From Antedon mediterranea (lineage: Eukaryota > Echinodermata > Crinoidea > Comatulida > Antedonidae): DNA of 64,000 nt. The position numbers and the translations under genes were made by a program. The stretch covers positions 15,656,101 to 15,720,100 of the forward strand of contig NC_092677.1 of the NCBI RefSeq assembly GCF_964355755.1, given 5' to 3'. Shown piece by piece: positions 48,837 through 52,900 of this stretch. How positions within the stretch are numbered: the first letter of the stretch is position 1; the number at the start of each line of letters is the position of its first letter. The notes beneath the pieces are model-generated. The model searched no databases and had not been told where the DNA came from. It saw nothing but the letters and a program-made list of their open reading frames with translations.

Positions 48837-48987
48837 TCTTGTGCGCACACTTTATACGCGCGCGCTTGTGCCAAGGTAACGATGGTCCCAAGAGGAACTG
48901 CATGACAACTAAACAAAACATAACTTGGATGAATTTTCAAGAGTGCACACGCAATCTACAAAGCTCAGTAAGTTTCTACTTATTGTT
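48837..48987 (+). repeat. Duplicated exon-like block, copy 1
   Basis: About 150 bp matching 50691-50840 in direct orientation. It includes ATG at 48902 opening 22 codons ([22 protein letters not shown]) ending exactly at GTAAGT (48968). Within those 66 nt only three bases differ from copy 2, two of them silent, whereas the 60 nt upstream differ at roughly ten positions. Confidence 0.75.
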
Positions 48988-49979
48988 TTACTATAATAAT
49001 TATAAAGTATAAAAATAATAATTTAAATTTTAAAAACTTTAAATCGTTTAGATATGAATCAGTTTGAAGATTATAACCACCAAGATCCCTACTACTAACA
49101 AAGAATCAAAAACCAAAAAAATCAAAAATAGATTTTACAAGCAGTAATAACTAATATGGCCGGCCGAAGTTGAGTTCGCATTTTGAGCGAGATCCTGGAT
49201 TCCGGAAGACATCATCTGAACTTTCATTTTTGTTTGCTTCTGATTTTGGTTGAGATTTCTTCTATTAACAGCTAATGCGATAGCCAGTTCGGTATACCGT
49301 CACTTCGACAGGCTTATTTGTAATTCTTCAAAAGGATAGAAATGAAAACAATCATGAATTAAAATACAATTTTTGCAACAGTTATAACAATAGGCCTATA
49401 AACTATTCAATTTGATATGAATAAGTGCGGTGTTTATTATGTATAAGCAGCCGCTCTGTCGGCGTATGTTATTATGTAAGTAATTGGTCAATCAAGCCCG
49501 TCGGTTTGTCGGTTGGGCAGTTTTATTGCCATTCGTCAATACCACACAGTCAGTGGCAGCCATGACTTTCGGTAATCTGTCAACACGCCAGTTAGTCTAT
49601 AAATTACCTATATTTAGTGCAAATTCTAAATCCGAACGTTCCACAAGGGCCCTGGTATTTCTCCAGCTTGTAAACCCGTTTAAATTGTTTCACGCTCTGT
49701 TGGTAAGTCTGAAGCGGACATGTCCTAAATTATAATAATACAAAATTAAATCAAAATATATTAGCTGTAATGTATGATCTATAATGATCCACCATCCTAC
49801 AAATAACTTAAAACACCGTTTTCCACCAGCCCATCCCAAAATAAAATTAGACAGCAGACGAACTATTTTTGTTAAGCCTATTCATGAACCATAAAACTAT
49901 ACATTTTGGTCAATATTTCTTGAATACACACTATCTTCTCTTTCATCATCAAAGGCATTCACCAACTGGCCTTATAATA
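48988..49979. other. Flank downstream of the EGF gene; no gene seen
   Basis: It includes minus-strand AATAAA hexamers (TTTATT at 49522-49527 and 49433-49438) that could end the EGF transcript. A plus-strand open stretch at 49484-49735 has no ATG start and no similarity. Confidence 0.45.
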
Positions 49980-52900
49980 TTAAACTAACCTTATTTCGCA
50001 TCTGTGGCCCGTAGTCCCCGCAGTACATTCACATTTATTACCGGGACGACATACACCCATCTGCCGACAGGATGGTTTGCATGCCTTTACTTCAACTGAA
50101 CAAGGCAATACAAAGAGAGAGTTATTTTGTTTTACATACAACAAGAATAATGTTTAACACAGTGGTACACCTTCACTACGAACCCAAGATGCAGTAAGAC
50201 TGTCGTCTTTTTCTTTCTTGTCATAAGACAACGTTAACTTAGTACAATACTAACGCTAAAGACTACTGGTTGTAGTCCTTTTGCTAGGTCCCCTCAAACA
50301 ATAAAGCGCACCTACACTACAAAAAGTTTAGAAAAAAACCACTACCTTACTTCATGATATGAACATACATTATATTATTTTATAGAAAGTTATGTGTCAA
50401 TAAAATATGTTGTGTTTTAAAGATAAAATAATGTTTTTCATTTTTTCATAGCTCTGTGATTTTACTGAATGTGCTGGAAAAAAATTAATAAAGTAGAGAA
50501 AAAGAAAAGTGTGTCGCATATGTCATTATACACTTTATTCACGAATCTGACTTACAAATTTAAAGCTATTATGTCTAACTTTTAAGACAGCCAGAGCCAT
50601 ATATTGAAATATTATTAAATATTATTCCTCCAATAAATCTCTAAAGCAGAGAGCCAATAAATTATACATCAGCGTTTCGCCGCCTCTGTTTCTTGTGCGC
50701 ACAGTTCCATACGCACGCGCGTGTCAGGGTAACGATAGTTACAAGGGGAACTACATGACAACTAAACAAAACATAACTTGGATGAATTTTCAAGAGTGCA
50801 CACGGAATCTTCAAATCTCAGTAAGTTTGTTTATTGTTAGCCTACGTTATTAGAAGTTTCCATAAAAAAAACCATAAAATTAGGAATAGTTATCTACTAG
50901 GCCAAGTACAAAGAACGTCGGTACACTTGGAATACACGAAAAATAATTTGTCTAATCTGGATTGTTTTTATATTAATAGTTTGAATACTTTCAAACACAC
51001 TTGTTTTTTCTCTTAAACCTCCAGAGAGGTAACCAATATGTATATTATATTTATTATAATAAAGAATCGGTTGTTTTTTAAGGAACAGAAGTAATTTTTT
51101 AAATATTTTCTTACTAGTCAATGTTTGTTAATTCAATCATGTGAATTAATATTATGTGCTTCCTAACGCTGATAAACTAATTTCTCTCTCGTAACTTGAA
51201 TTTAGGTCCATTAAATTACTTAATATTATGTGTTCCTTTTGTTTTACCTAGAAGGTCATGGAAAAACATCATAAAAGGCTGGAAACCAAGCAGATGCTTT
51301 AGTAAAAGGTAAGTTATAATTTGTTCAGCAGAGAAAAAATAGTAAAACAAGTAATTATTTGTTCAATATTCAGCCGGTCAGATATTTCAGACTTCTTTAG
51401 AAAGTACGTCCTGTGTTTTTTCCATAATGTCAAAGAAGAGGAAAATACGAAAAATGATTCTGACGATGAGAAATATTCAAATAATATATGGAATTGCAAT
51501 CAGATACGATAATCAATAATTGCCATTTGACATTGGCAATGGCATAATAAGGGGATTTGCATCCTTATTCAGGATGAACGCATCTTTGGACGTAGAATCG
51601 GCGAGCCTGACACAATAAGAAAATTGTGCTTCCTGGACGTTATCAACAATGTAACGGCGATTGGAAATACACCAGACGGAAATGACATCAACATCCTTAC
51701 TACCAATGGACATTACTCAAGTATGTCTTGCCCAATTATCACTTCACTGACCTCCTATGATCAATCACCAAGATGTAGCAATGAACTATACTAGGAGTAT
51801 AGTTCATTGATGATAGTGATTTTTAAATTTGGTTCTCACTAGGACGCAACGCAATGACGTAAGCATAACGCAAACAATTTGACCAAAACGACGCAATCTT
51901 TATAGTCTTGCTCATACTTACGTATTTGACATCTGGATCCGCTAGTACCGGCACGACATCTACATTTATTCCTGCCTACACACCTTCCGCCATTTAAACA
52001 CGGTGTTGAACAAGAGGGTATTTCTAAAGATCAATACAAAATCTACATCATATACGACAAAAACGAAACTATCTATAAATATGGTAAATACGCCAAACGA
52101 TGACAACATAGCACCCCATTCTGGCGAAAACAAACACCCCAGAATGTTCTTGTCTGCTGAAAACAACTTTGAACTTTTCAATGAAAGACGTGTGATATAT
52201 CATCAGACGTATTTTCAAGATCGTTAAGCTTGGTTCCCACTAGAACGTAACGCAAGGACGTAAACGCAATGCAAGCGTTTTAATCAATGACAAGCGAAGT
52301 TATATAGACAGTTAACAATCACAAGCGAATAAGCCATCGCTTGTGATTGGTCAATTCACTTGCGTTGCGTTACGTCCTTGTGTTGCGTCGCTAGTGGGAA
52401 CCACGCTTTAAGGAGCTGAAACTTGAACATGTTTCAAGATATAAAGGTACCGAATAATTTGATTTGCGAATTGTTTTATTGAAAGGAGACGAAATTAAAA
52501 CAAACCAACCGTATTGGCACCGTGTTCCGGTGAATCCCGTGAGACAAATACAATTGTTTTCATTGTAACAAATTCCGTTGTTCTGGCAGCTAGGCACACA
52601 TGCCGCTAGTAAAACAAAAAAAATAAAAAAAATGAGCGAGTTACGCTCAGCTCGCTCAGAATATCGAAAGAGTTTCCAATATGCTTTCATTTTTTAACAA
52701 CCTTAAAAAATGATCTACGTTGACCTTACTAACTACAACCTGAACTAGGAACATGTTGAGACGAAAACGACCTCAGTTAGTAGCGTCATGAGACAAATCC
52801 AGTGTGCGACTGGCAATGGTTCATGACTCAACTTGGTTTGGTCTTGGTTTTCGTTTGTGTTTCAACGTAGGCAGAATTGTTCCTACTTTCTAGGATTTTT

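What the first reader, a model, noticed from the sequence alone, without database searches (positions are those of the whole stretch)
48837..51308. Duplicated 22-codon exon-like block with conserved frame and donor, possibly alternative first exons of an unknown small gene
Two direct copies 1.85 kb apart share an ATG, 22 open codons and GTAAGT at the same place. In the 66-nt frame three bases differ and two of these are synonymous (CGC/CGG, CTA/CTT), while the upstream flank has diverged more and carries length changes. That is a hint of protein-level or splice-level constraint. The GC-rich GTGCGCAC/ACGCGCG runs just upstream look promoter-like. Downstream, 51252-51308 has a good acceptor and donor. 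This could be a gene with tandem promoters, nested antisense to the EGF gene, or the end of a transposon.
Basis: partly seen in the sequence, partly recalled or inferred. Interest (0 to 1): 0.65.

Follow-up and report, generated by a model that had tools for sequence, protein, structure and literature searches.

The report
Broken fragments of a kinase gene
The duplicated "exon" is real. It is the non-coding first exon of a small family of protein-kinase genes in this animal-like genome, and the copies in this window are truncated, decayed leftovers, so the finding is ordinary.

Summary
The repeat is real: two ~140-bp blocks (A 48823-49114, B 50681-50838) with a 66-nt core differing at 3 sites and the same GTAAGT. 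The genome holds nine copies, not dozens. The cleanest copy (C8:15.865 Mb) reads as a 506-residue kinase after splicing.

The block is therefore exon 1 of a kinase gene family. The 22-codon frame is not coding: every structurally intact gene has TGA at codon 15, and the gene's start ATG is in exon 2. Exon 1 is still conserved well above its flanks (A/B 3/66 vs 42/108, p=1e-7), so constraint is at RNA or DNA level.

The window copy is dead. Exon 3 has four deletions and an in-frame stop. The kinase exon is absent. A and B are not sisters: A groups with the C1/C7 copies, B with C8c/C3 (support 92).

Verdict: truncated gene-duplicate pseudogenes in and beside an antisense EGF-repeat gene. Neither a transposon nor an alternative-first-exon protein gene is supported.

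The parts
48823..48901 (+). Promoter-proximal / 5' flank of exon-1 copy A (GC-rich, GTGCGCAC...GCGCGCGC)
   Evidence: Shared with the C1, C7a and C7b copies; diverges faster than the exon
48902..48967 (+). Exon-1 copy A, conserved part: non-coding leader exon of the kinase gene family. The open 22-codon frame is incidental, a longer form of the 14-codon uORF seen in intact genes
   Evidence: Nine genomic copies; TGA at codon 15 in C1, C7a, C7c and C8c; 66-nt conservation Fisher p 1e-7 vs flanks for A/B
48968..49114 (+). GTAAGT donor and first ~145 bp of the family's intron 1, then similarity stops: copy A has no exon 2, exon 3 or kinase exon of its own
   Evidence: blastn to C1, C7b and C7c intron 1, 84-87%
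50681..50754 (+). 5' flank of exon-1 copy B
   Evidence: blastn to C8c and C8d
50755..50820 (+). Exon-1 copy B (leader exon), donor GTAAGT at 50821
51244..51308 (+). Decayed exon 2. The former start codon ATG is TTA (51244-51246); a 6-nt deletion just before it removed the true CAG acceptor; the cctag at 51247-51251 derives from CCTGG; the donor GTAAGT at 51309 is intact
   Evidence: Alignment of 11 exon-2 copies; genome hits next to other family members
51374..51797 (+). Decayed, 3'-truncated exon 3 (unique N-terminal region of the kinase protein): deletions of 41, 27, 7 and 18 bp relative to C8c and an in-frame TAA
   Evidence: tblastn E 5e-33, 48% identity over query residues 1-170
49998..50081 (-). 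Last recognisable exon of an EGF-repeat gene, antisense, lying between copies A and B; further EGF exons run from 51929 to 59930, so B lies in an EGF-gene intron
   Evidence: EGF cysteine-pattern scan and weak Pfam EGF matches

Best explanation
Copies A and B are exon 1 (a non-coding 5' leader exon plus its promoter-proximal flank) of members of a small, recently expanded protein-kinase gene family. Intact members have four exons: leader exon 1 with a short uORF; exon 2 with the start codon (MPGRSWK...); exon 3 coding a family-specific N-terminal region; and exon 4 coding a complete kinase domain with catalytic K, E, HND, N and DFG. The family spread by DNA-level segmental duplication with introns kept. 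The window holds two remnants. A is promoter + exon 1 + part of intron 1. B is promoter + exon 1 + ruined exon 2 + ruined, truncated exon 3, with no kinase exon. Shown: homology, order of parts, broken frames, missing kinase. Inferred: that exon 1 is transcribed in intact copies, that it is a 5'UTR, and that the window copies are functionless.
For: Nine exon-1 copies, clustered at C7:7.34-7.65 Mb and C8:15.70-15.98 Mb plus C1 and C3. The window's exon 2 and exon 3 recur downstream of exon 1 in the other copies in the same order. Kinase exon: Pfam PF07714 3.4e-24 and PF00069 6.4e-21, both above curated cut-offs. A clean GT-AG gene model gives 506 aa in C8c. Purifying selection in intact copies: dN/dS 0.28-0.55 for the kinase exon and 0.31-0.58 for exon 3. 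TGA at codon 15 of the exon-1 frame in all four structurally intact genes; ATG lost in C3 and C8d; frameshift in C7b. Window exon 2 lost acceptor and ATG. Window exon 3 has four deletions and a TAA. No kinase match in the window.
Against: No transcript data: whether intact copies use exon 1 as leader is inferred from position, donor conservation and sequence conservation. The window's exon-1 donors, exon-2 donor and exon-3 acceptor are still intact, so some spliced RNA could be made. The 66-nt core is as well conserved in the window copies as in intact ones, which could mean retained function or just a young age.
Confidence: 0.88

Rival explanations
1. A and B are alternative first exons/promoters of a still-expressed gene or non-coding RNA in the window, splicing to 51252-51308 and 51374 onward, possibly acting antisense to the EGF gene.
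For: Donors at 48968, 50821 and 51309 and an AG at 51373 are intact; exon 1 is conserved in both copies.
Against: The true exon-2 acceptor and start codon are deleted or mutated; exon 3 is frame-broken; the kinase exon is missing; A and B belong to different family branches and so did not arise as a pair.
Confidence: 0.08
2. The block is the end or internal part of a transposable element.
For: Copies are on four chromosomes.
Against: Only nine copies in 354 Mb; homology extends across several exons and introns of a kinase gene under purifying selection; no transposase or terminal repeats were seen at the copy edges; no Rfam family match at the block.
Confidence: 0.03
3. The 22 codons encode a real N-terminal peptide (the reader's protein-level constraint).
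For: Both window copies are open; two of three differences are synonymous.
Against: Stops in all intact genes; exon 1 is out of frame with the exon-2 start in most copies (2 nt between acceptor and ATG); no excess of third-position variable sites (6/6/10).
Confidence: 0.02

Closest known systems
Eukaryotic protein kinase superfamily (Pfam PF07714 / PF00069), tyrosine-kinase-like branch
   Same: The intact paralogs carry a complete kinase domain with VAVK, HNDLATRN and DFG motifs; nearest solved structures are distant animal tyrosine and tyrosine-kinase-like kinases (E about 1e-9)
   Different: The N-terminal region coded by exons 2-3 matches no Pfam family and no solved structure; the window copy has lost the kinase domain altogether
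Duplicated (unprocessed) pseudogenes / partial segmental gene duplicates
   Same: Introns retained, 3' truncated, start codon lost, frameshifting deletions, neighbours to functional paralogs on the same chromosome
   Different: Nothing notable, except that two remnants of different family branches lie 1.85 kb apart
Genes with alternative first exons (tandem promoters)
   Same: Two exon-1 copies upstream of one set of downstream exons
   Different: The downstream exons are dead and the two exon-1 copies are not sister copies

Membership tests
Protein kinase gene family (intact paralogs) | Kinase domain above the curated Pfam cut-off | tested here: met
   PF07714 86 bits vs cut-off 23.1; PF00069 75.3 vs 31.7 for the C8c exon
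Protein kinase gene family (intact paralogs) | Catalytic residues K (VAVK), E, D (HND), N, D (DFG) | tested here: met
   Invariant in four aligned members
Protein kinase gene family (window copy) | Kinase exon present downstream | tested here: not met
   No match in the window by tblastn or genome search
Duplicated pseudogene | Homology to a functional gene across exons and introns | tested here: met
   Exon 1, intron 1, exon 2 and exon 3 match paralogs
Duplicated pseudogene | Disabling lesions | tested here: met
   Start ATG to TTA, acceptor deleted, four deletions, TAA, kinase lost
Duplicated pseudogene | Not expressed as a protein | not testable with these tools
   No transcriptome or proteome available
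Transposable element | Dozens or more dispersed copies with common termini | tested here: not met
   Nine copies, edges not shared
Alternative-first-exon gene | Both first exons transcribed and spliced to a common exon 2 | not testable with these tools
   Needs RNA-seq; the common exon 2 has lost its native acceptor

The most novel reading that the evidence does not exclude
The kinase-derived fragment is still transcribed from promoters A and B as a non-coding RNA antisense to the EGF gene, or regulates its paralogs through the highly conserved 66-nt leader. The leader would then be a conserved RNA or DNA element acting in translation or initiation control of the kinase family.
Probability: 0.07. 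Interest if true: 0.35.

Novelty: new member of a known kind. Interest (0 to 1): 0.14.

Why it matters
It corrects a tempting misreading: an open frame shared by two copies with mostly synonymous changes looked like a coding exon but is a non-coding leader, as seven further copies show. For annotators of this genome it gives a gene model for an expanded kinase family and marks the window copies as fragments. The one mildly interesting residue is the leader exon, which is more conserved than synonymous sites of the kinase exon.

Tried and rejected
Rfam scan of 48-52 kb: no credible hit at the block. RNA folding of exon 1 A and B: no more stable than shuffles (z 1.34 and -0.42). Local tandem duplication of an EGF exon together with the block (EGF exon spacing ~1.86 kb resembles the block spacing): rejected, since nothing else is shared between the two intervals and A/B are not sisters. 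The leader in more distant paralogs (C4, C10, C2): not found by nhmmer, so it marks the recent subfamily or is too diverged there. Profile searches of the exon-3 region against solved structures: nothing; a kinase-profile search with a strict cut-off of 1e-15 also listed nothing, while single-sequence phmmer gave many kinases at 1e-8 to 1e-10. The pattern GTGYCANGGTAAC resembles an RFX X-box, but I derived it from the block itself, so its enrichment is circular. One literature search gave nothing specific.

Full report
Observation. The two direct copies are as described: 48827-48975 and 50681-50828, spacing 1853-1854. The ATG frames are 48902-48967 and 50755-50820, both followed by GTAAGT, with three differences in 66 nt, two of them synonymous. 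The exon-like 51252-51308 is present.

How many copies. The window lies at C8:15,656,101-15,720,100 of a 354-Mb genome in 18 contigs. The block has nine matches: A, B, C8:15.867 Mb, C8:15.981 Mb, three at C7:7.34-7.65 Mb, one on C1 (34.609 Mb) and one on C3 (13.393 Mb). That is neither a two-copy local repeat nor a high-copy transposon. Only the best candidates are scored in this genome, so nine is a lower bound.

What surrounds the copies. The window's 51252-51308 segment also recurs next to exon 1 in the other copies. All-against-all comparison of the oriented loci showed the same order everywhere: block, intron, short exon, intron, longer exon, and (outside the window and C3) a ~830-bp highly conserved stretch. 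The last stretch is an open frame of 263-274 codons in C1, C7a, C7c and C8c and matches the protein kinase domain (PF07714 E 3.4e-24; PF00069 E 6.4e-21). The residues K27, E50, H135-N136-D137, N142 and D158-F-G are invariant among four aligned members.

Gene model. In C8c the parts join with consensus splice sites: exon 2 ATG after CAG|CA, exon 3 after TTTCAG, exon 4 after TTTATAG. They give an open frame of 506 codons ending in a stop. dN/dS between intact copies is 0.28-0.55 in the kinase exon and 0.31-0.58 in exon 3, so these are genes under selection. C7b carries a non-LTR retrotransposon-like frame in its first intron. Exon 3 has distant relatives upstream of the diverged kinases on C2, C4, C8, C9 and C10, so the N-terminal region and the kinase form a stable pair. 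That N-terminal region matches nothing in Pfam or among solved structures.

Exon 1 is not coding. C7b has a frameshift, C3 has ATT instead of ATG plus a stop and a 4-nt deletion, and C8d has CCG instead of ATG. The start codon of the kinase frame is in exon 2, usually two bases after the acceptor and so out of frame with the exon-1 ATG. Variable sites by codon position are 6, 6 and 10, which is not significant. Exon 1 is nevertheless clearly conserved: mean pairwise identity is 0.90 against 0.69 upstream and 0.68 downstream; A vs B differ at 3/66 against 42/108 in the flanks, Fisher p 1e-7; C7a vs C8c at 5/66 against 45/115, p 2e-6. With dS of ~0.23 between C7a and C8c in the kinase exon, the leader changes more slowly than synonymous sites. 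Inference: it is a 5' leader or core-promoter element, with a 14-codon uORF in intact genes. RNA folding gave no support for a structure.

The window copies are broken. Exon 3 lacks 41, 27, 7 and 18 bp relative to C8c and has an in-frame TAA. It ends near 51797, and no kinase exon is found in the window. Copy A keeps only its flank, exon 1 and about 145 bp of intron 1.

A and B are not a pair. On exon 1 plus flank, A differs from C1 at 11/139 and from B at 20/137; B is as close to C8c (20/136). A maximum-likelihood tree separates {B, C8c, C3} from the rest with support 92; with only ~139 columns this is moderate evidence. So A and B look like remnants of two different family branches. An old array on C8 that contained both types is the simplest history, but this is an inference.

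Surroundings. Thirteen EGF-like cysteine patterns lie on the minus strand from 49998 to 59930 (Pfam support). B and its exons sit in the intron between the EGF exons at 49998 and 51929. A lies beyond the last EGF exon that can be recognised.

Verdict. This is an ordinary case of partial duplicates of an expanding kinase gene family. Transcription could not be tested here.

Noticed in passing
L016 (C3:13391000-13400999) 3427-3759, 4002-4334, 4577-4918: The C3 family member carries a 575-bp tandem triplication of exon 2 plus the start of exon 3, without a kinase exon: another dead fragment amplified in place.
   Followed up: partly
L018 (C7:7492000-7501999), reverse strand, 2598-4626 of the reverse complement: A CR1/jockey-like non-LTR retrotransposon frame (490-codon reverse transcriptase-like ORF, judged by eye) is inserted in intron 1 of the C7b kinase gene.
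   Followed up: no
C2, C4, C7, C8, C9 and C10: A more diverged set of kinases (41-53% identical), most also preceded by the same N-terminal region, indicates a larger family whose N-terminal domain is in no library searched (KY..CCF motif, W..(I/V)P..(I/L)R).
   Followed up: partly
window 48868-48880 and 50721-50733: GTGCCAAGGTAAC / GTGTCAGGGTAAC, conserved in most copies, resembles an RFX X-box next to NRF1-like GTGCGCAC and ETS-like TTCCG motifs: a possible shared promoter (motif resemblance only).
   Followed up: partly
window 47898-47917 and 48433-48452: Perfect 20-nt inverted repeat 515 bp apart, just upstream of copy A; possibly a small mobile element.
   Followed up: no
window 52213-52243 and 52391-52421: 31-nt inverted repeat (TTGGTTCCCACTAG...CTAGTGGGAACCA) around GTAACGCAA-type repeats, similar to a stretch near 51830-51886: looks like a MITE with copies elsewhere.
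   Followed up: no
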